The position numbers and the translations under genes are program-made. Under the pieces are notes generated by a model that had not been told where the DNA came from, did not search any database, and saw only the letters and a list, made by a program, of their open reading frames with translations. From Nocardioides sp. Kera G14 (lineage in GTDB: Bacteria; Actinomycetota; Actinomycetes; Propionibacteriales; Nocardioidaceae), in the NCBI RefSeq assembly GCF_020715565.1, contig NZ_CP085839.1, positions 1,364,001-1,428,000 on the forward strand: 64,000 nt of DNA, in the 5' to 3' direction. This document shows positions 27,557-38,722 of the stretch, piece after piece. Each line of letters begins with the position of its first letter. The first letter of the stretch is position 1.

Positions 27557-27624
27557 GTGCCTCGGACCTGCGAAAACGCGAGGAAATCGTCCGCTTGGGC
27601 CGCATTGGGGCCGCAGGTCGGCAT
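27532..27624 (-). pseudogene. Left boundary relic: 3' end of an unidentified gene
   Basis: A 30-codon leftward tail reads FLAFSQVRGTFELCYGV-stop and is matched at the protein level by the tail at 38277 (YVTFPQVRALF..VFELYYDI-stop). Both are followed by a hairpin and a CGTTT-rich tract. The gene family is not recognised. The two tails bracket the defence genes and look like leftover ends of one repeated gene. Confidence 0.45.
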
Positions 27625-27705
27625 CTGGGCGGCTCGCGGCCCACGCCCCAGCTGATAAAGACTTACGAGTTCAACCACTTCGCCCGGCGGCCGTGGTCAG
27701 ACAAC

Positions 27706-27719
27706 TTCGCATATGCGAA
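27706..27719. promoter_or_regulatory. Perfect 14-bp palindrome TTCGCATATGCGAA
   Basis: TTCGCATATGCGAA is its own reverse complement and ends 10 nt before the GTG of the HTH gene, next to a TATTTG box (27722-27727) that would suit a leaderless transcript. It is a strong candidate for an autoregulatory operator of the HTH protein it precedes. Confidence 0.6.
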
Positions 27720-27729
27720 ACTATTTGTC

Positions 27730-28392
27730 GTGAGTCTCGTGGGTGTGTCGACAGTCGCCGAGCGGCTGGGCGTCTCGACGCGACAGGTGCAGCACCTCGT
27801 CGCCAAGGGAGACCTGCGCCAGGTCGCCCGCGGCGTGATCGACGAGTCCTCTGTCGATCGATTCCTGGCTGTGCGTGGCGACTCACGCCGGCGGGCGTGG
27901 TCAGAGCGCACGGCATGGGGAGCAGTCGCGCTGCTCGCCGGCGCTGAGGCGCAGTGGCTCGGACAGAGACAGCGGACGAGGTTGAAGGCACGGCTCCGTG
28001 AACTTTCGAGCACGGAGCTGGTCGAACGCGCCCGTGACAGAGCCGTCGTTACCCGCTATCGAGCTCATTCAAGTGCTGGCCGGTACCTGCTGACGGAGCT
28101 GGTGCAACCCGCCAATGTGGCGAGTCGGCTCGGACTCGCGGAGACGAACGACATCGACGGGTACCTCCGGAATGTCGATGTCGACGGTGTCGTGTCGCGT
28201 CACGGACTGATTCGGGACGACGAAGGTCGCGTCACGCTGCGCGCAACAACGATGGACCTGGACGTGGCGCGCGACCTAGCTGAACGTGGGGCGGTTCTGG
28301 CGGCACTGGACCTGGCGGAGTCCTTGGATGTGCGCGAGCGGCGGGCTGGACTGGTTGCGCTCGATCGGGCGTTGGAGGACTTCCGTGAGTGA
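27730..28392 (+). CDS. HTH-domain protein, putative antitoxin/regulator of a nucleotidyltransferase pair
   Basis: A 220-residue protein. Residues about 6-45 are an excisionase/MerR-type helix-turn-helix (VSTVAERLGVSTRQVQHLVAKGDLRQ..GVIDESSVDRFL). The middle is Arg/Ala-rich helical, and the C-terminal part (SRLGLAETNDIDGYLRNVD..ARDLAERGAVLAALDLAESLD) has no clear family. GTG at 27730 is chosen because it starts directly before the HTH and lies just after the palindrome. The 3' end overlaps the nucleotidyltransferase gene by 8 nt. The order regulator then nucleotidyltransferase recalls AbiEi-AbiEii type IV toxin-antitoxin systems. Confidence 0.65.
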   Translation: MSLVGVSTVAERLGVSTRQVQHLVAKGDLRQVARGVIDESSVDRFLAVRGDSRRRAWSERTAWGAVALLAGAEAQWLGQRQRTRLKARLRELSSTELVERARDRAVVTRYRAHSSAGRYLLTELVQPANVASRLGLAETNDIDGYLRNVDVDGVVSRHGLIRDDEGRVTLRATTMDLDVARDLAERGAVLAALDLAESLDVRERRAGLVALDRALEDFRE

Positions 28393-29158
28393 CCGCCCGA
28401 CCATCGAAGTCGCTAGCCCTCCTGGAGGTTGGGCCGACCCATGGCCGAACGTCGCCGAGATCGAAGCCGTGCTCCCGCATGACAAGTGGACTCTGGTCGG
28501 TGGCCTCATGACACAACTCCACGGCATCCATGGCGGAATCGACGCTCTGCGGCCGACCAACGACGTCGACATCGTGCTGCACGTGGAGACGACTCGCGGC
28601 GTCGCGTCGGAGGCCGCCCGCGCACTGGAATCGATCGGCTACGAGTTCAGTCCGTCGATCAACGAGCGGAACAACATCGCCCATCGCTTCACTCGCGCTG
28701 AGTCGCACGTCGACCTCGTCACCAGCGCCACCGACGTCGTCGACGTGCTCGTCGCAGACCACGTGGCGCCGCGGGTAGTCGAGAAGCTGCGCGGGAAGAA
28801 CATGATGGCGATCGAAGGTGGGACTCAGGCGCTGCGGCGAACCATCAACGCACGCCTGCAGATCACTCTTGATCGCACCACGACGGTGAGCGTGCCGTCA
28901 GTATTCGGCGCCCTGATCCTCAAGGCGGCTGCCCATCAAACCGACTCCCGCGACAAGGAACGTCATCTGCACGACGCAGTGCTGCTGCTGGCGGTCATCG
29001 AGGACCCCTACGCGTTGCGTACGCAGTTCGCCGGGTCAGACAGGTCACGACTGACGGCGCTCGCCGGGGCATTGCATGATGGCGCCCAGGCTTGGCGGGC
29101 GCTGCCCGCAGACAGACGGGCCGACGGGCAAGTCGCCCTCCGAATCCTCACGACCTGA
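28385..29158 (+). CDS. Nucleotidyltransferase-fold protein, possible AbiEii-like toxin
   Basis: A 257-residue protein with the minimal nucleotidyltransferase signature: VGGLMTQLHG (GG at about residues 39-40) followed by TNDVDIVL (DxD at about 60 and 62), and a third acidic candidate in SHVDLVT. The C-terminal half is helical (DKERHLHDAVLLLAVIEDP). The GTG at 28385 overlaps the HTH gene by 8 nt. AbiEii-type toxins transfer nucleotides to tRNA or other targets; whether this one is a toxin is not shown. It lies in the defence island beside the Wadjet operon. Confidence 0.65.
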   Translation: MSDRPTIEVASPPGGWADPWPNVAEIEAVLPHDKWTLVGGLMTQLHGIHGGIDALRPTNDVDIVLHVETTRGVASEAARALESIGYEFSPSINERNNIAHRFTRAESHVDLVTSATDVVDVLVADHVAPRVVEKLRGKNMMAIEGGTQALRRTINARLQITLDRTTTVSVPSVFGALILKAAAHQTDSRDKERHLHDAVLLLAVIEDPYALRTQFAGSDRSRLTALAGALHDGAQAWRALPADRRADGQVALRILTT

Positions 29159-29314: not shown

Positions 29315-30651
29315 TCAGTGGAGGTCGTCGAGAAGAGTCGCCAGGATCAGCTCCTCGTGGACCGCGACACCACGGCGCTCCATCTCGACGGCCAGTCTCG
29401 TGTCCCAAGCTGTCCCAACCGGCGTGCCGGACAGCGCCAGCCTCGCGTCCGACGGCAAGCCGGAAACCGCGGCGCTGTAGTCCTCCGCCGCCATCCGCCA
29501 CGGCGCGGCGCCCGCCGCGAGCACCCGGCCCGCAATCGCAACACCTGGCCAGTCGAAGTCGCCGTGATAGCGGACCGGCATCCCGTCGGCGATCAGGCGG
29601 CGCAACAACAGCCACCCCGCGGTCGACGGGTTCCCCGACGTGCACAACAGCACGCCGGGAACGCCGGTCTTCGCGGCCGCCTGCAGCACCTGCGGGTTCT
29701 CCACCATCGACACGGCCGTGCCCTCCGAGCACAAGGAGGGCACGGTGGCGGCCGGCCCGCGGAGCTCCTGCAACGTCAGGTGAGTGACGACGCCCAGGTC
29801 GGCGCGGGACCGCATCATCACCGACCACGCGTCGTTCCCGGGTGGTCGCAGCGCCCATACGAGCACGGTGCCGGACACGTGGTCGGTCGTTACGCCGAGC
29901 CGTCCCCACAGGTCTCGGCGTCTGGCCGCGGTTTCTGGAACCGCAACCTCGAACACTGACGCGGCGGCGCGCAGCACCAGCGCCGCGGCGACACGACCGT
30001 CGTCGAGGCCGTGCGCGTCGCCGGTGCAGCGGCTCGCGAGCTCGCGAGCTCGGCAAGCTCCCATCCGGACACGGGGCCATCACCGGTTGGCGGCGCGGAG
30101 CTCAGGACGCCGGCGGCACGCATCTCCGCCAGCACCGCTCCCGCACCAATGATGGCGGCTGCTGCACCGTCGCCGGCGCGGGTCAGGAGTCCTGCCCGGC
30201 GGACGGCCTCGACGAAGCCGGGCACCCACGCGGCATCGGCCAGGCCCGCGTCAGCGAGCGTCGCATCGAGCAGCCCGATCGTGTCCCCGCGGACCCGGGC
30301 GGCATCCTCCCGTGCAGCCGTCCGGTCCACGAGCGGCCGACCAACCAGGTCGCTCACCACCGCCACGAGGCCCGCGGCTGCGGCCGAGCCGCGCAGAGCG
30401 CGGTCCAGGTCAGCGAGGCGGACTCGGACTCGTCCCGGGCGCGTGTTGCGGCCCAAGAGCCCCGACAACCGGTCAGCACCTGCATCGTCCAGGTCGACGC
30501 TCACCACGCCGGCGGCCCGGAGCCGGTTGCGTTCCAGACGCTTGCGCACCTCCTCCCACAGCGGGGCAAGGCACGGGTCGGTCAGGAACGCCCACAGGTC
30601 TGGTCCCAGACGCGGCCGCTCCTGCGGTGTGCCGGTCGCCGGTCTCGTCAC
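29315..30651 (-). pseudogene. jetD: jetD (TIGR02679/DUF2399), Wadjet nuclease subunit, frameshifted by an 8-bp duplication
   Basis: The N-terminal half reads from GTG at 30651 (LGPDLWAFLTDPCLAPLWEEV..GPVSGWELAELAS) and overlaps the jetC stop by 4 nt. The C-terminal half continues in another frame (CTGDAHGLDDGRVAAALVL..MVENPQVLQAAAK..YHGDFDWPG..TAWD) to 29315. The Toprim-like metal residues (E of ENP, DFD) are in the second half. Removing one copy of GCTCGCGA at 30032-30047 joins both halves into a 442-residue protein of normal size. As it stands the product stops at about residue 253 (29890), before the nuclease domain. JetD is the subunit that cuts plasmid DNA. Confidence 0.85.
30032..30047. 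repeat. 8-bp tandem duplication inside jetD
   Basis: GCTCGCGA occurs twice in a row (30032-30039, 30040-30047), followed by a partial third GCTCG. One copy restores the jetD frame (ELAELASRCTGDAH), so the duplication is the frameshifting event. Such short tandem repeats can be lost again by strand slippage. Confidence 0.8.
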
Positions 30652-32885
30652 CGGGCGGCTCGCAGGTGCTTGTTGTGGCCGTCCCAGTGGACGTGCGTGG
30701 TGACTGCGGCGCTGCCTTCGACACGACGGATCTCGTAGCAGTCGAGCTTCGGGACCTGCGGGTAGGTGCCCCACAGGGCGTGACCGGTCATCGCGAAGTC
30801 GAGGTCCAGACGAACCAGGAGGCCCATGAGTTCACCGATCGTACGGTCGTCGACCTTCGCGAACGCGTCATCGAGAAGTATCAGCCGCAGCGCCCGCGTC
30901 GCGTCAGGCAGGCCGGACAGGTAGGCGTCGATGGCGGCGAACAGCGTCACGTAGGAGACGAACCGGATCTCGCCCTGGGACAGCTTCGCCCGCCGCGCGA
31001 TGCGGCGTTCCAGGCCGGGTGTCGGGCCCAGGATGAAGACCTCGACGTAGTGCCATTCGCGGTAGTCCAGTGCCTTGCGCAGGTGGGCGGCGAACCCGGC
31101 GGATGCGTCGAGGGCGAACGACTCGTCAACGCGTGCCTTGAGGAGCTCGGTGAGCTCGGCGGTGCTCTCCGGTGACCTGACTCGGGCGTCGGTGGCGACG
31201 AGCTCTTTGATGCGGGCGATGTCGCCGTCGGCGGACTCGGCCAGGCGCCACCGCAGCTTCACGCCGATCCCGTGACTGGTGCGGATGGTGCCCAGCCGGC
31301 GGGTCATGTCGTCGATGAGGTGCTCGGCCTGTGCGATGCGACGGCGCAGCTCTTCGGCGACTCCACCGAGGACGAACTCGGTGAACACGCGCCGTTCACG
31401 GTCCGACAGCGCGTCCCGCCCCTGCTGGCACAACCGGTCGAGCTCGTCGGCTGCCTCGGCGACCGTCCGGGTGCCGGACGCGTCGGACACTTCGACCAGG
31501 TGCACGCCGTCCTCGACGTCGACTGTCACGTCGAAGGTGCCGGTCAGATTATGGTCCAAGACCTGCTCGGCACGGGTAACCGCGGTGTCGCTCACCGCTG
31601 CAGCGCCTGCGCCGACTGCCGCACGGACCCGGTTCGCGGCCGCCTGCACGGTGGCGACGCCCACGTCCGGGAGCTCGAGTGGCTCCGGGCTGCTGCCGGT
31701 GGCTGCTGCCACCAGGCCCGCGAGCGCGTAACGGCGGACCAGCCGTCCTGCTGCTGCGGCGAGATCGGTGCGGGCAATCTCCGCGTTGTCGGCGGTGGTG
31801 GCTGCTTGACTCTCGGCGACTCCGCAGTCGTGCTGAAGGGGCGCCAAGAACCCCTGAGCGGTGCTGAGCTCGCTGCTGCGGTCTTTCAACGCCGCTTCCG
31901 CTTCCTTGAGGTTTGCGAGCGCTTCCGCCGCGTCGCCGCCGAGCGTTTCGCGGATCGACTCGAGCTCGGTCGCCTCCCCGTGCCACAGCGTCCAGGCGTC
32001 CTCCGCCGCCTTCTCGAGCTGGTGCCGGGACTGACGTTCGCCTGCGAGCCGTTCGACCGCACCGGCGTGCAGGCTCAGCCTCCGGTCGAGCTCCTGGGTA
32101 GTCCGGACCGCCGCTGCGCAGGCCCGGTCCACTTCGGCGAGAGCGTTCAACGCCTCGGCCAGTTCGTTACTGCCGGTCGGGAGGTTGAAATGGCTGCAGA
32201 TGTCGATGTGCCGGGCGTTCGCTGCGGCCCACTGCGACCGGTGGTCCTCGGCGGTGCGGGCGGCCTTGTCGGCATCTTCTCGCGCGGACTCGGCGCGGCC
32301 TGCGGCCTCGATGGCGCTCGTTCGTGCGCTGGAGACGTCGCGGGTGACGGGTGCCTTCCGGGCCCGGTCGTCGATCCGTTCCAGTGCGGTTTGCGCCTCC
32401 TCTCGTGCGCCCTGCCGGGCCTGTGCTGCCTCGTCGAGAGCCGTCAGCTGCTCGGCGATCTCGGCCAGCCGGCGCGCGCGGGCGGCGGCGCGGGCGGCGG
32501 CACCGATGTGCTCAGCGGCGTTCGGCTGGTGGCGTCCGGCCAGCACGTCGGTTCCCCAGGACCCGTCGGCGTCGACCCACATCGTTCCGGCCTCGGCGCC
32601 GTACCCGATCCGCTCGAGGATCGCGGTGACCGTGGCGGCGGGAAGCCCGGATGCGTCGTCGGGCACCAGGACGCCTGTGACGGGAGCCGACGCAAGCTTG
32701 CCGTGGGGACGGATGAGAACCTGCCCGTCGGGGGCACGGAGGTTCGCGTCGGCGGTGACGGTAGCGAGCAGGAGCCCCGAGGCGAGCAAGGCGCCTTCGA
32801 TGCCGGCGCGGTCGACGGTGGGGACGTCGTCGTCGAAGTTGACGGCCCGCCACAGCGGCACCTCGCCTTCGGGTGTGGGCTGCAC
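30648..32885 (-). CDS. jetC: jetC C-terminal half (TIGR02680, SMC/MukB-like ATPase of Wadjet)
   Basis: 745 residues from GTG at 32885, which directly follows the TAG of the N-terminal half in the same frame. It starts with the segment PEGEVPLWRAVNFDDDVP, continues with long Ala/Glu/Arg-rich coiled-coil stretches (about residues 130-370), and ends with the ATPase head: signature KLSQGEIRF at about 634-642 and Walker B LRLILLDDAFAKVDD at about 663-677. Alone it cannot bind ATP because Walker A is in the other half. It may be made by termination-reinitiation at TAG-GTG, or the gene may simply be dead. Confidence 0.8.
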   Translation of the reverse strand: MQPTPEGEVPLWRAVNFDDDVPTVDRAGIEGALLASGLLLATVTADANLRAPDGQVLIRPHGKLASAPVTGVLVPDDASGLPAATVTAILERIGYGAEAGTMWVDADGSWGTDVLAGRHQPNAAEHIGAAARAAARARRLAEIAEQLTALDEAAQARQGAREEAQTALERIDDRARKAPVTRDVSSARTSAIEAAGRAESAREDADKAARTAEDHRSQWAAANARHIDICSHFNLPTGSNELAEALNALAEVDRACAAAVRTTQELDRRLSLHAGAVERLAGERQSRHQLEKAAEDAWTLWHGEATELESIRETLGGDAAEALANLKEAEAALKDRSSELSTAQGFLAPLQHDCGVAESQAATTADNAEIARTDLAAAAGRLVRRYALAGLVAAATGSSPEPLELPDVGVATVQAAANRVRAAVGAGAAAVSDTAVTRAEQVLDHNLTGTFDVTVDVEDGVHLVEVSDASGTRTVAEAADELDRLCQQGRDALSDRERRVFTEFVLGGVAEELRRRIAQAEHLIDDMTRRLGTIRTSHGIGVKLRWRLAESADGDIARIKELVATDARVRSPESTAELTELLKARVDESFALDASAGFAAHLRKALDYREWHYVEVFILGPTPGLERRIARRAKLSQGEIRFVSYVTLFAAIDAYLSGLPDATRALRLILLDDAFAKVDDRTIGELMGLLVRLDLDFAMTGHALWGTYPQVPKLDCYEIRRVEGSAAVTTHVHWDGHNKHLRAAR

Positions 32886-34904
32886 CTACGGTGGAGCGTC
32901 CGGCGCCGGGTCGATGGCGGACTCGAGCCGCGCCTTCTCGGCGCCGAGCTCGGCGCGGGTCTCTTGGTCGCGCTCGTCGGCGTCGTCGAGCCGGGCCAGC
33001 AGGACGTTGTGGCGGCTGCGGGCGTTGCTGGCTGCCAGTTGCGGAACACGGTCGAGGGAGTCGAGGTGCGCGGTGATCTCGGGGCTCGCCTCGACAACGG
33101 TCAGCTGTCCAGGGTCGGCGAGGAAGTCCTGAAGGGCGTCGAAGGTCGCCCAGGCGATACCGGTGCCGAACGCTTCGGTGGTGTCGGGGTCATCGAGCCA
33201 CGCGTTCCACGCCTGGTGCAACTCGTAGACCGCTGCGTCGAGAGCGGCGGCGCGGTTGCCGGCGCTGGCTGCTGCTACCTCGGCCCGCTGGGCTGCGGCC
33301 GCGGCGGCGGACTCCGCTTTCGTGACTTCGCCGTGCTGGGTGTCGAGGGCACGGGCGGTGGCCAGCCGGCTGGCGGCGTGACGCTGCCGCTCTCCTGCTG
33401 CGGTGCGGGTGCGGCCCAGGTGGGCGGCAAGGTCGGCGGGGGTAGCGGAGCCGACGCTCACCTGTGTCGCGACCGGCCGGGTCACCGGTTGCGGGTCCTG
33501 GTAGCGGGCCACGCGAACCGTGTCGGCTTCGGCAAGGGAGGTCGTGGTGTGCGCGTCGACAGGTTCGGGCAGCGCGATGGCCAGACCGGTTGCTGTCAGC
33601 GCCTCGTGCACGTGCTCGAGTTCGGCGACAACGGCGCGAGCTTGGGCGAGGACGTCTTGGGCGAGGGCCCTGGTGGCGTCAGCCGCGGCAGTTTCGGCGT
33701 GGCGGGCTCGTTCGGCGGCGCGCAGGGAGACCTCAGCGGAGGCTCCTTGCGCGTCGACTCGCTTGCCTCGTTCGTCGAGGTCACGCTGGTCGGCGTACGC
33801 CTTCGAGGCCTTGATGCCGGCGATGGTCCGTTCGAGCTCGATGACCGCGTCGGTCAACTCCCCAACGGTGGCCTTCGCTTCGGCGAGCTCGTCGACGAGG
33901 GTCTCGTGGCGGGTCTTCTTGGCAGTCGCGTCCTTTACGGCCCGTGATGCCGCGGTGGCTGCGGCGAATGCTTCTTCGGCGGTGACGGTGAGGGCGCCGG
34001 CGGCGTAGCGGCGGTACGTGTCGAGGAAGTTGCGGACGTGGTTGCGGGCGGACTCGAGCCGCTCCTGGGCGTTCCGGGTCTCGGAGAGTCCGTCTAGCTG
34101 TTCCCCGGCGGCGCTCAGTGCTGCTTCGCTCAGTGGCGGGAGCGCTTCGGACAGGATCTGGGGCAGCTTCCCTTCTTCGATGCGGTTTCCGACGTCGGGC
34201 GAGCGGAGCGTGTGGAGGAGCTGGAGGAACCCGTCGTACCGTTCCCTGCCGGTTTCGCCGGTGAGTCCGAACACTGCGGTACGGACCCGGTCTCTGTGGG
34301 CGGTCGGCGAGTCGGTGATCTGCGCCGGGCCGATGAGCACGGTGAGCTGTTCGCGGCTGAGCGCGTCGCGAGTCGGGGACAGCAGGTGCAGATCGTGCCC
34401 GACCCGGAGGTCGGTGATGAAGTACCAGGCTTTCATGTCGGTGGTGGCCGAGGAGTACCGAAGGAACGCGCCGATCGCCAGGTACGCCACGTCACGGCCG
34501 CTGGCGATCGCTTCGGCGTCCTCCTCATCGTCCGGGTCGAGGTCTCGGGCGAGTTCGAGCCACAGGTACCCGGGCCGGTTCCCCTGCCCGTCGCCTCCGG
34601 CCTTCATGAGGTCCTGAAGGCGGACCTTGTTCGCCCCGGTCGCGTCCATCTTGCGGCGGTCGCCGTCGAGGAGGAACGGGAGCAGCATCTCCAGAGCGCG
34701 GCTCTTCCCGGAGCCGTTGGTGCCGCGGAGCACGAGCCGGCCGCCGGACAGGTCGAACTCGGTGTCGTAGTAGTACCAGACGTTGACGATGCCCGCGCGC
34801 CGCATCCGCCACCGGTACGGGTGGTGCTGAGCGGGAGTCTGGTCCTCGACCGTGTCAGCCGGCGAGGGCGAGGGTGGGGGCGGGTTGAGATCGGTGATGG
34901 TCAT
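32886..34904 (-). CDS. jetC: jetC N-terminal half (TIGR02680, SMC/MukB-like ATPase of Wadjet)
   Basis: 672 residues from ATG at 34904, overlapping the jetB stop by 4 nt. It has a proline-rich N-terminus, the Walker A motif GTNGSGKSRALE at about residues 61-72, the remainder of the N-terminal head, then coiled coil from about residue 300 (AATAASRAVKDATAKKTRHETLVDEL). It ends at an in-frame TAG (32886-32888) after IDPAPDAPP. Read through, the two halves give about 1,418 residues, the usual size of the family, so this is one gene split by a nonsense codon between the two coiled-coil arms. Confidence 0.82.
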   Translation of the reverse strand: MTITDLNPPPPSPSPADTVEDQTPAQHHPYRWRMRRAGIVNVWYYYDTEFDLSGGRLVLRGTNGSGKSRALEMLLPFLLDGDRRKMDATGANKVRLQDLMKAGGDGQGNRPGYLWLELARDLDPDDEEDAEAIASGRDVAYLAIGAFLRYSSATTDMKAWYFITDLRVGHDLHLLSPTRDALSREQLTVLIGPAQITDSPTAHRDRVRTAVFGLTGETGRERYDGFLQLLHTLRSPDVGNRIEEGKLPQILSEALPPLSEAALSAAGEQLDGLSETRNAQERLESARNHVRNFLDTYRRYAAGALTVTAEEAFAAATAASRAVKDATAKKTRHETLVDELAEAKATVGELTDAVIELERTIAGIKASKAYADQRDLDERGKRVDAQGASAEVSLRAAERARHAETAAADATRALAQDVLAQARAVVAELEHVHEALTATGLAIALPEPVDAHTTTSLAEADTVRVARYQDPQPVTRPVATQVSVGSATPADLAAHLGRTRTAAGERQRHAASRLATARALDTQHGEVTKAESAAAAAAQRAEVAAASAGNRAAALDAAVYELHQAWNAWLDDPDTTEAFGTGIAWATFDALQDFLADPGQLTVVEASPEITAHLDSLDRVPQLAASNARSRHNVLLARLDDADERDQETRAELGAEKARLESAIDPAPDAPP

Positions 34905-36253
34905 GGGACCTCCGAGTCGGTGTCGAAGAGCGAAGGCTCGATGCTGCTCGAGTCGAGTGCGTCTGTGGGTTCGCCGCCGGTGGCGCGCCGCGATCGGGCG
35001 GGGGAGCGGACCGGTTGGGGCCGGTACCGGAAGCAGGCGGGGTGCAGCGCGAGACCGTCGCTGGTGGCGGTGACCAGAGAGACCGCTTCGAGAAGGTCGA
35101 CGACTTCGGTTCGCAGCCGGTCAAGGTCGCCGGAGACGTCGGCACGCCACGACCTGGCGTTGCGGCCGGTCAGGTCCTCGAGTTCTTCGGCGACCATCTC
35201 CCACGGGGCGAGGACACCGGGCACGTGCCGGGTGCGGCTGCCGTTCGCCTCGCCGTCCTCGCCGTCCTCACTGTCGTCGCTCACGGGGGCTCGGCTGGAG
35301 GGAACGTTGATGGCGGTGCCGGCAGTGGGGCGGAGGTTGTCGGTGAGCGCGTCGAGGAGCAGGAGCGCCGCTTGACGGATGGTGCCGTTCCCGGGGAAGC
35401 CGACGTCGGTGAGCTCTTCGTCGGGGTCGTAGGCCAAGGCGCCTTCGGCCCGCACCTCGAGGATGAGTCCGAAATGGTCCTCCAAGGCTCGGGCGACGTC
35501 GCGACGTTCGCGGGACAGGACGTCGGCTTCGGCTTCGGTCAGGTCCTCGCGACGGGTGAGCGGGTTCTCGGCGAGCCGGCGCCGAAGTTCGAGGCGAGGC
35601 TTCTCGCGGGCGTCCGGGTCCGCTTGCCACAGCTCGTCCGGGCTGCCCAGTGTGTACAGGGGGCGAGACAGAAGGTGCGGCAGCAATGACCGGTTGACGG
35701 TCAGGAGGGCCTCTTCGCGGCGTTCTCCCCACGCGGCGACGGACCCGTCGGTCTCGACCAGGACGCCCCAGCCGACAAGGAGGTCGACGGCGGCGACGAG
35801 GGCGCGGCGGTCGGTGATGGAGTCGTCGACGGCGATGCCTGCGGATGCTGCGTCGGCGCGCAGCTGGCCCACGAGGGTGGACAGCAGGACCTGTTCACCG
35901 ATGCCGGGTGCGAGCAGCCCGGCGCACACCAGGGCGAGGTGGGTGTAAGCGCGTGGGGTGAAGTCGACGCCGTTGCTGCGTCGGGCGCCGCGGGTAGGTG
36001 CGTCGGCGGGCAGCGGGGTTTTGGCGAGCCGCGCGAAGCTGGACTCGATGACGAGTGGGTAGCCGAGCTGGGTGGAAAACGTCTGCTTCAGGGCGGTCGC
36101 GTGTCGGCGGACCAGCGCCATCTCTTCGGGATGCTCGGCTGCGGTGAGGACCGGATGCGCCAGGAGGGCGCGGGCCGCGGCGCGGCGTTCTGCCTCGGCC
36201 TGCGTTCGGGTCGCGGTGCCGGCGTTCGTCAGCGGAACGGCGTCAGTCGTCAT
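34901..36253 (-). CDS. jetB: jetB (TIGR02678/DUF2398), MukE-like Wadjet subunit
   Basis: A 450-residue protein of the TIGR02678 family: RRAAARALLAHPVLTAAEHPEEMALVRRHATALKQTFSTQLGYPLVIESSFARLAKTPLP at the N-terminus (quoted only as a guide to the first 70 residues), then ARGARR-type linker, AYTHLALVCAGLL and winged-helix segments to about residue 340, and an Arg-rich tail. It overlaps both jetA and jetC by 4 nt (ATGA). In Wadjet the JetA/JetB pair forms the kleisin-KITE module that binds the JetC motor. The frame is intact. Confidence 0.85.
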   Translation of the reverse strand: MTTDAVPLTNAGTATRTQAEAERRAAARALLAHPVLTAAEHPEEMALVRRHATALKQTFSTQLGYPLVIESSFARLAKTPLPADAPTRGARRSNGVDFTPRAYTHLALVCAGLLAPGIGEQVLLSTLVGQLRADAASAGIAVDDSITDRRALVAAVDLLVGWGVLVETDGSVAAWGERREEALLTVNRSLLPHLLSRPLYTLGSPDELWQADPDAREKPRLELRRRLAENPLTRREDLTEAEADVLSRERRDVARALEDHFGLILEVRAEGALAYDPDEELTDVGFPGNGTIRQAALLLLDALTDNLRPTAGTAINVPSSRAPVSDDSEDGEDGEANGSRTRHVPGVLAPWEMVAEELEDLTGRNARSWRADVSGDLDRLRTEVVDLLEAVSLVTATSDGLALHPACFRYRPQPVRSPARSRRATGGEPTDALDSSSIEPSLFDTDSEVP

Positions 36254-37803
36254 GACGCGCCCTCGGTGACGTCGGCCGGCTCCTGATCGCGGCTTGCGCG
36301 CAGCCCGGTCGTGGTGGCCTGGACAGTGAGGTCGTGGATGATCAGGAGCCCGTCGTCGCAGCGGATGACGGTCGGGGTGTCAGCGGGTGCCGCGACGATC
36401 ACCAGGTCGATGTCGGTGTCGGTCGACGTCATCGTCTCCTCAAGGTCCTGGTGAATCGCGAGGAGGTCGCCGAGCCGCTCCAGAAGCAGGTCGCGGGCCA
36501 CGGGCGTGAGGCGGGCGCCGTGGAGGTTGCCGGTGGCGGCGAGCTCGGCGGCGGCGGCCTTCTTCCGTGCAGCTTCGGCGGCGGCTTCGGCGAGCAGGGC
36601 CTCGCGGTCCATGGCCGGGTCGGGGACACGGGAGGAACGGCCGCGGGCGGACCGGTCTCCTCGTTCGCGCAGCGACAGGGGCACGTCGACCGGTTCGGTG
36701 TCCCACCATGAGGTGGTCGGTCCAGCACGGCCGTCATCCTCCTCAGGTCCGAGGAGGAGGTGCCGTGACGGGTAGGCGCCGAACGCTGCGTCGAACAGCC
36801 GCTTGCAGCCAGCGGTGTCGGTGCCGTCGAACCAGCCGGCTAGGCGGAGCAGGTCGGCGCGGCGAGACACACCGGTGCCAGGTGCGGACAGCATCCGCTT
36901 CGCGTTCGCGATGAGCTGCCCGAGGGCCTGTTCGGCTGCGTTGCGCAGCTGGTCGGGGCCGGAGCGTCCGCGTCGGCCGGTGTACCAGGCGGTCAGGTCG
37001 TCCCAGTCGGAGCGACTGCGGCCGGGCGATCGTTCGGCTGGGTTCCCCTCGGGATCGATGAGCCGGGGCAGGGCGTCGAGGGTGGCGATGAGGTCGGGCA
37101 GGTGCGGTTCGACGTGCTCCAGGAGCGAAGCAATGGCGGGGGCGTGGCGGGTGACGTCGGCGGTGAGAAGGTCGACGTAGTCGAGCAGCATCTCCTTGAA
37201 CGCCCGATACTCGGGAAGGCCGAGGTCGTAACGGGAGAGGCGTCCTTGGACGTAGGCGTAGAAGTCGGCCGCGGAGTCGGAGAAGAGCCGCTGGTTGCTG
37301 AACACTGTGGTGACGTCGGCGGCGAGCGCGTCGACGTCACCGGCTCCGGTGAGGTTGTCGAGGATCCTCTGGAGGGTCTGTACGGTGCCGCCGAGGAGCT
37401 CGCGGGCTACTTCGCGGGCGCCGTCGCTGGCGCGCAGGATCGCGTCTACGTCCCGTTGGACTCGTCCGCCGAGCTTGGTGACCTGGTAGCGCGAGCGGGA
37501 GCGGAGCCATTCGGTGACGGTGGCGACGCGGGCGTCTCGCATGGAGGGGACGAGGTTGCCCCAGGCGACCAGCTGACGGCAGCGCGTCTCGACTTCGTCG
37601 ACGTCGAGGATGATGCCGTCCCGGTCGAGCAGCTCGTGGGCTTCGGCGGCGGACAGGTCGGTCAGGAGGGTCTCGGTGAACAGGCGCATCAGAGCCATGT
37701 ACTCCCGCGCGTTGTCCGCGGTCACGTACCGGTACAGGTCAAGTCGCTGCCGGTCGGTGGGCACGTCGAGGAATGCGTCTGTGCCGGTGGCGTCCGGTGC
37801 CAT
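36250..37803 (-). CDS. jetA: jetA (TIGR02677/DUF2397), MukF-like kleisin subunit of Wadjet
   Basis: A 517-residue protein of the TIGR02677 family: RQRLDLYRYVTADNAREYMALMR at the N-terminus, then LVAWGNLVPSMRDARVATVTEWLRSRSRYQVTKLG, a helical middle (FSDSAADFYAYVQGRLSRYDL) and a C-terminal domain after an Ala/Glu-rich helix. The ATG at 37803 is preceded by GGGAGG with good spacing; another in-frame ATG at 37833 is possible. It is the first gene of the jetABCD operon. Wadjet loops plasmid DNA and cuts it. The frame is intact. Confidence 0.85.
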   Translation of the reverse strand: MAPDATGTDAFLDVPTDRQRLDLYRYVTADNAREYMALMRLFTETLLTDLSAAEAHELLDRDGIILDVDEVETRCRQLVAWGNLVPSMRDARVATVTEWLRSRSRYQVTKLGGRVQRDVDAILRASDGAREVARELLGGTVQTLQRILDNLTGAGDVDALAADVTTVFSNQRLFSDSAADFYAYVQGRLSRYDLGLPEYRAFKEMLLDYVDLLTADVTRHAPAIASLLEHVEPHLPDLIATLDALPRLIDPEGNPAERSPGRSRSDWDDLTAWYTGRRGRSGPDQLRNAAEQALGQLIANAKRMLSAPGTGVSRRADLLRLAGWFDGTDTAGCKRLFDAAFGAYPSRHLLLGPEEDDGRAGPTTSWWDTEPVDVPLSLRERGDRSARGRSSRVPDPAMDREALLAEAAAEAARKKAAAAELAATGNLHGARLTPVARDLLLERLGDLLAIHQDLEETMTSTDTDIDLVIVAAPADTPTVIRCDDGLLIIHDLTVQATTTGLRASRDQEPADVTEGAS

Positions 37804-38183
37804 CTCACCGCCTCCCGTCTGGGCGGAGCTCATCCGGTCGGGGGCCCGCTGCCGGATTGGACAGTACGCCGACCATCCGACAGTTCGGGCGACTTTCGAG
37901 AGGCTTGCCAGCCCCCGCGGGAGAACGGGCCCGGGGGATGGCCGGTCCATCGGCAGCGTCAGCTAATCACCGTTCGCTGCCCTCTGACGACGGGAAATCA
38001 GTCGCCAGCATTGGGCGCCTTAGGAAGCGCCGGCAGGGAACGTCTCGCTGGCGGCAGGACTGCCCCGGCACCGTGACAGCAGATGCGATGCCTCGTCGGC
38101 CGCATTGCGGTCGCGCCCATCGCTCGTCGCTCCGCAGGATCGTCTCCGTGGGCCGCGTGGCCGCACTGGAGCAGACCAACGAA
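37804..38183. other. Intergenic stretch upstream of jetA, no gene recognised
   Basis: No frame here has recognisable protein similarity. It must contain the jetA promoter, but I see no convincing boxes. Together with 38184-38554 (hairpin, boundary relic and leader region) it forms a 750-bp non-coding junction between the defence island and the B12 genes. Confidence 0.5.
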
Positions 38184-38414: not shown

Positions 38415-38554
38415 AGAACCGAGAATCTTGCGGACTGTTTGCGGACTGGCTGGCGTGGTGGTGTCGGCAGCGGATGACCGTCCCGGGCCGTCGACACCAG
38501 CGGTCCGGGTGCGAGGCGGGGAGCGCGTTGAGGGCCGCGATAGGTACGCTGTGC

Positions 38555-38722
38555 GGGCCAGTTGTACTCCACTCGTGGGGTCAGGGAACCCGGTGAGAGT
38601 CCGGGACTGACGCGCAGCGGTGAGGGTGACGGGCGGGGCACGCCGCAAGGCAGCCACTGGGCCGCGAGGTCCGGGAAGGCGTTCCGTTCCGATTGATCCC
38701 GAGTCCGAAGACCTGCTGGCCC
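38555..38722 (+). promoter_or_regulatory. Cobalamin riboswitch 1 (cobG operon leader)
   Basis: The element contains GGGAACCCGGTGAGAGTCC (38584-38602), GCAGCGGTGAG, CAGCCACTGG and the 3' B12-box GAGTCCGAAGACCTGCT (38701-38717), the hallmarks of adenosylcobalamin riboswitches. GGGCCAG (38555-38561) can pair with CTGGCCC (38716-38722) as the closing P1 stem. It ends 26 nt before the cobG start and should repress the biosynthetic operon when cobalamin is plentiful. Confidence 0.88.

What the first reader, a model, noticed from the sequence alone, without database searches (positions are those of the whole stretch)
30648..34904. SMC-like jetC of a Wadjet system split by one in-frame TAG followed directly by GTG
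Seen: the frame from ATG 34904 is open to a TAG at 32886-32888, and the very next codon is GTG in the same frame, open to 30648. The two pieces hold Walker A and the LSQGE/Walker B head respectively and together have normal TIGR02680 length. One base change explains it. It could be a dead gene, a split SMC whose halves are made by termination-reinitiation and assemble through the coiled coils, or stop-codon readthrough.
Basis: partly seen in the sequence, partly recalled or inferred. Interest (0 to 1): 0.72.

Follow-up and report, generated by a model that had tools for sequence, protein, structure and literature searches.

The report
Decayed Wadjet anti-plasmid operon
An anti-plasmid defence operon in an actinobacterium carries a stop codon in one gene and a frameshift in the next, so it is most likely a dead copy of a known system and not a new kind of split protein.

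Summary
In detail: the jetC frame from ATG 34904 stops at TAG 32888-32886, the next codon is GTG in frame, and that frame runs to 30648. The TAG lies at the coil-to-hinge boundary, in a column that is Trp in the three closest homologues and in 41 of 43 well-aligned loci of at least 41% identity. Of 80 related loci, 76 carry both halves in one ORF; none of the other four shows a break here. RF1 is present, and 45 tRNA places give no CTA anticodon. GTG 32885 has no Shine-Dalgarno signal above background.

jetA and jetB look intact. Two lesions of different types in successive genes point to a recently decayed type II Wadjet operon. A split SMC made by reinitiation is not excluded but unlikely. 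A natural Wadjet null mutant is already in print (PMC10586767, passages), so interest is low.

The parts
36250..37950 (-). jetA (kleisin, DUF2397 / TIGR02677 / JetA2), apparently intact; the family match begins at residue 64-74, so the true start is probably downstream of 37950
   Evidence: 72% identical to the L038 copy over 482 aligned positions
34901..36253 (-). jetB (KITE, DUF2398 / TIGR02678 / JetB2), apparently intact; ATGA overlap with jetA
32886..34904 (-). jetC 5' piece: N-terminal head lobe with Walker A plus first coiled coil, ends at TAG
   Evidence: domain names from recalled SMC anatomy
32886..32888 (-). in-frame TAG at the coil-to-hinge boundary, in a column that is Trp in close homologues
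30648..32885 (-). jetC 3' piece: hinge, second coiled coil, LSQGE and Walker B head lobe
   Evidence: domain names from recalled SMC anatomy
29315..30651 (-). jetD (Toprim nuclease, TIGR02679 / JetD2) in two frames; probable GTG start at 30651 overlapping the jetC stop (GTGA)
30032..30050 (-). 8-bp tandem duplication at which the jetD frame changes; relatives L038-L040 have one continuous frame here

Best explanation
A type II Wadjet (jetABCD) operon in a Nocardioides-group chromosome has been inactivated recently. A nonsense substitution at the entry of the JetC hinge removes the hinge, second coil and C-terminal head lobe from the translated product. An 8-bp tandem duplication in jetD removes the Toprim nuclease part. 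Without a complete SMC motor and nuclease the system should not cleave small circular plasmids. Shown: the two lesions and the unbroken state of relatives. Inferred: loss of function, and that it is recent.
For: TAG on a Trp column. Both halves in one ORF in 76 of 80 related loci; of the other four, L131 and L139 show only a C-terminal fragment that does not reach the boundary, and L163 and L168 are frameshifted in the N half. The order and class searches list no in-frame stop in any match but the window's own (one search says further matches are not listed). Five other genomes with a broken frame (G038, G301, G780, G790, G819) break at five different places, none at the hinge column. jetD frameshift, with the frame continuous in three relatives. 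No CTA anticodon at 45 tRNA places; RF1 over its cut-off in an open frame. In 24 neighbouring ORFs given to family scans, no family was found divided between adjacent ORFs, which speaks against a generally poor assembly. GC by codon position in both jetC pieces equals that of jetA and jetB, which fits recent decay.
Against: jetA, jetB and both jetC pieces still look coding, so old decay is unlikely and selection on the pieces cannot be ruled out. Relative-rate counts show no excess on the window branch for five of six segments; only the jetC 3' piece is weakly faster (78 against 55 unique changes, chi-square 3.98, uncorrected for six tests). The stop falls at a domain boundary and is followed by GTG, about a 3% coincidence. 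Raw reads were not seen, so either lesion could be a sequencing error. No expression data.
Confidence: 0.86

Rival explanations
1. Split SMC: ribosomes stop at TAG and restart at GTG 32885 or 32861, and the two halves assemble through the antiparallel coiled coil with the hinge on the second half.
For: The stop falls at a domain boundary and the next codon is GTG. The operon's normal junctions use ATGA/GTGA overlaps, so coupled translation is likely here. The probable jetD start also lacks an SD (-2.2 kcal/mol), so a weak SD does not exclude restart. Both jetC pieces keep coding composition.
Against: SD energy is -3.2 at GTG 32885 and -4.8 kcal/mol at GTG 32861, against a background mean of -3.2 (SD 2.3) and -10.2 at the jetC ATG. 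No homologue resolved here is split at this point. It does not explain the jetD frameshift.
Confidence: 0.05
2. Stop-codon readthrough or suppression makes full-length JetC.
For: The frame is open and conserved on both sides.
Against: No CTA anticodon at 45 tRNA places, and a canonical RF1. jetD would still be broken.
Confidence: 0.02
3. One or both lesions are sequencing or assembly errors and the operon is intact.
For: Raw reads were not available.
Against: An in-frame nonsense substitution and an 8-bp tandem duplication are not typical homopolymer errors (general knowledge). In 24 neighbouring ORFs scanned no family is divided between ORFs. The genome is one contig, 99.49% complete.
Confidence: 0.05
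4. Reversible off-state: the jetD tandem repeat changes copy number by slippage (phase variation), and the jetC stop is tolerated or arose later.
For: Two adjacent perfect 8-bp units at the site.
Against: Only two units; perfect 8-bp tandem pairs occur at four other places in the same 64 kb. The jetC stop is not in such a repeat.
Confidence: 0.02

Closest known systems
Type II Wadjet (JetABCD; PADLOC JetA2/B2/C2/D2; TIGR02677-02680)
   Same: gene content, order, operon overlaps and family matches
   Different: jetC interrupted by TAG and jetD by a frameshift
Nocardioides kribbensis DSM 16314 jet operon (L023/L038/L098; named by the matching contig length)
   Same: closest homologue found; JetA 72%, JetB 67%, JetC pieces 51% and 56%, JetD parts 56% and 63% identical
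   Different: all four genes are unbroken frames
JetC of PDB 9qe0/9qe1 (recalled, not shown by the call, to be the Neobacillus vireti type II protein)
   Same: sequence relative over nearly the whole 3' piece (profile 5-736 of 737)
   Different: a single SMC chain of 1371 residues
Natural eptABCD (jetABCD) null mutant of a laboratory Mycobacterium smegmatis strain (PMC10586767, passages seen)
   Same: a naturally inactivated Wadjet locus, linked to greatly improved plasmid uptake
   Different: another genus; the exact lesion was not looked up here

Membership tests
Type II Wadjet | four adjacent genes jetA-jetB-jetC-jetD of the type II families | tested here: met
   TIGR02677 and TIGR02678 over cut-off; TIGR02680 over cut-off for the frame read through, each piece alone under it; TIGR02679 in two pieces, each under cut-off; PADLOC JetA2/B2/C2/D2
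Type II Wadjet | JetC as one SMC chain with head, coils and hinge | tested here: not met
   TAG at 32886-32888
Type II Wadjet | JetC ATPase motifs conserved | tested here: met
   GTNGSGKS, LSQGE, LDDAFAKVD as in closest homologues, but on separate pieces
Type II Wadjet | JetD CAP plus Toprim in one chain | tested here: not met
   frameshift near 30040
Type II Wadjet | restricts small circular plasmids | not testable with these tools
   needs a bench assay
Naturally split SMC | homologues also stop and restart at the hinge boundary | tested here: not met
   76 of 80 loci have both halves in one ORF; none of the other four shows a break at this point. Not resolved in two genomes: G608 (two contig ends meet this boundary) and G645 (a run of N covers it)

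The most novel reading that the evidence does not exclude
A functional two-piece SMC motor, made by termination-reinitiation exactly at the hinge boundary, that keeps loop extrusion while the nuclease JetD is switched off by a tandem-repeat frameshift, leaving a Wadjet core without cleavage.
Probability: 0.03. Interest if true: 0.75.

Novelty: new member of a known kind. Interest (0 to 1): 0.14.

Why it matters
It is a double-lesion example of Wadjet decay. Since each piece still matches the PADLOC models on its own, automated callers could count this locus as a complete defence system (inference). For the host it predicts unhindered uptake of small plasmids (inference).

Tried and rejected
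The other 19 tile ORFs were not scanned. A first genome-contig scan with one protein found nothing; the alignment query found 447 relatives, of which the best 80 were kept. A predicted structure of the 3' piece was asked for four times and the machine was busy each time; the hinge boundary therefore rests on alignment to homologues, to JetC 9qe0 and on recalled SMC anatomy. The two frames of G038 looked at first like a natural split here; its first frame runs past the start of the hinge before the second takes over, so it is read as a frame break elsewhere. G645 was first taken for a broken copy; a run of N covers the place, so it says nothing. Two G608 contigs end at the hinge boundary; this is an assembly break and is not counted as a split gene. 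The comparison of flanks found only the right edge of the segment, near 38,532-38,557; the left edge was not sought. Paper searches; no title or abstract start listed there mentions a split JetC, and the listed papers were not read in full. PMC12647877 and PMC10586767: passages only; PMC12287153: abstract and outline only.

Full report
Observation. The window lies in a single-contig 3.47-Mb genome at C1:1364001-1428000. On the minus strand, jetC starts at ATG 34904 and stops at TAG 32888-32886; the next codon, GTG 32885, continues the same frame to 30648. The two pieces match TIGR02680 positions 1-590 and 604-1356 of 1356 and the PADLOC JetC2 models. Walker A is in the first piece, LSQGE and Walker B in the second.

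Operon. jetA (37950-36250), jetB (36253-34901) and jetC overlap by ATGA, and jetC and jetD by GTGA. jetA and jetB match their families over nearly the full profile. jetD does not: an ORF 30774..29890 holds its N-terminal part and an ORF 30064..29315 its C-terminal Toprim part, in another frame. Where the frame changes, the window has two adjacent copies of an 8-bp unit; in the relatives L038, L039 and L040 the frame is continuous through this place and the tandem copy is not seen. So jetD is frameshifted, a lesion the finding does not mention.

What stands at the TAG. In an alignment of the window with 29 full-length relatives from the order, the column is W in 18, Y in 4, R in 3, L in 3 and T in 1; the three closest all have W. 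In 79 ORFs from the 80 genome-contig loci it is W 41, H 27, Y 7, G 1, R 1, V 1 and gap 1. The TAG is thus simplest as a nonsense substitution at a Trp codon, and the following GTG as an ordinary Val codon; the N. cavernae copy (L022) also has Val there.

Are homologues split here? 76 of 80 loci have both halves in one ORF. The four others are L131 and L139 (only a C-terminal fragment matched, not reaching the boundary) and L163 and L168 (frameshifts in the N half). Searches of 391 genomes of the order and 394 of the class list no other copy with a stop inside the match (one search says further matches are not listed). In the first, smaller search a weak match in G004 (19.8 bits, far under the cut-off) had one TGA. 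Frame breaks occur in G038, G301, G780, G790 and G819, at five different places: about 440 residues before the hinge column in G780, 40-80 before it in G301, just after it within the hinge in G038, and roughly 170 and 290 after it in G790 and G819. Broken jetC copies are therefore an ordinary background. Two genomes are unresolved at this point: G608, where two contigs end at the boundary, and G645, where a run of N covers it. The genus search found a jetC relative in 10 of 215 genomes, the window's own included, so the system is sparsely distributed in the genus. Relatives with matching contigs are named Nocardioides kribbensis and N. cavernae, hence 'Nocardioides group'.

Decoding and reinitiation. 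Rfam's tRNA model finds 45 places in the genome; ARAGORN on them gives no CTA anticodon. An unusual tRNA missed by the Rfam model cannot be excluded. RF1 is present over its cut-off. SD pairing energy is -10.2 kcal/mol at the jetC ATG, -6.4 at the jetB ATG, -3.2 at GTG 32885 and -4.8 at GTG 32861, against a background mean of -3.2 (SD 2.3). The probable jetD start scores only -2.2, so a weak SD does not exclude coupled restart. The chance that a nonsense change is followed by a start codon is 9 of 271 in this gene.

Age of decay. GC by codon position is about the same in jetA, jetB and both jetC pieces (third position 0.85, 0.84, 0.85, 0.85); the jetD N part differs (0.83, 0.60, 0.80). Relative-rate counts against the N. 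kribbensis copy, with N. cavernae as outgroup, are balanced for five of six segments; the jetC 3' piece is weakly faster on the window branch (78 against 55; chi-square 3.98, uncorrected for six tests). This fits recent loss and does not prove it.

Artefact? Twenty-four neighbouring ORFs outside the operon were given to family scans: four, ten, ten. All ten and nine of ten match some family; of the four, two match NCBIfam and all four Pfam, two of them only weakly. No family was found divided between adjacent ORFs. The four pairs of ORFs that overlap by more than 100 bases in the tile match different families. Raw reads were not available.

Mechanism and precedents. [quoted passage not shown] subtilis, and a laboratory M. 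smegmatis strain carries a natural null mutation in eptABCD (jetABCD) (PMC10586767, passages). In C. cellulovorans a mutant with dramatically improved plasmid uptake by conjugation had lost jetABCD among three spontaneous deletions, and targeted deletion raised uptake about five orders of magnitude (PMC12287153, abstract). In an E. coli type I Wadjet the elbow-to-hinge segment can be replaced by a short linker, and the authors conclude it is not needed for loop extrusion (PMC12647877, passages). That makes tolerance near the hinge conceivable, but here the whole C-terminal head lobe also lies behind the stop. The best explanation is a dead operon (0.86).

Noticed in passing
window 27595-29158 (+): Two ORFs beside jetD with weak matches to AbiEi antitoxin/HTH and AbiEii nucleotidyl transferase (below Pfam gathering scores), perhaps an AbiE-like pair.
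   Followed up: no
window about 38532-38557: Homology to the cobalamin-gene region of six other genomes of the genus begins sharply here, between that region and the jet operon, suggesting the right edge of an acquired segment.
   Followed up: partly
L194 and L195 (G608 contigs C164 and C20): Two contigs of one genome end inside jetC at the same coil-to-hinge boundary; an insertion or an assembly gap could explain it.
   Followed up: partly
L179, L180 (G171, G451): The cobG-like match in these genomes is listed with one in-frame TAG; not examined, may be a gene end inside the match.
   Followed up: no
L163 and L168: jetC copies with frame changes in the N-terminal half.
   Followed up: no
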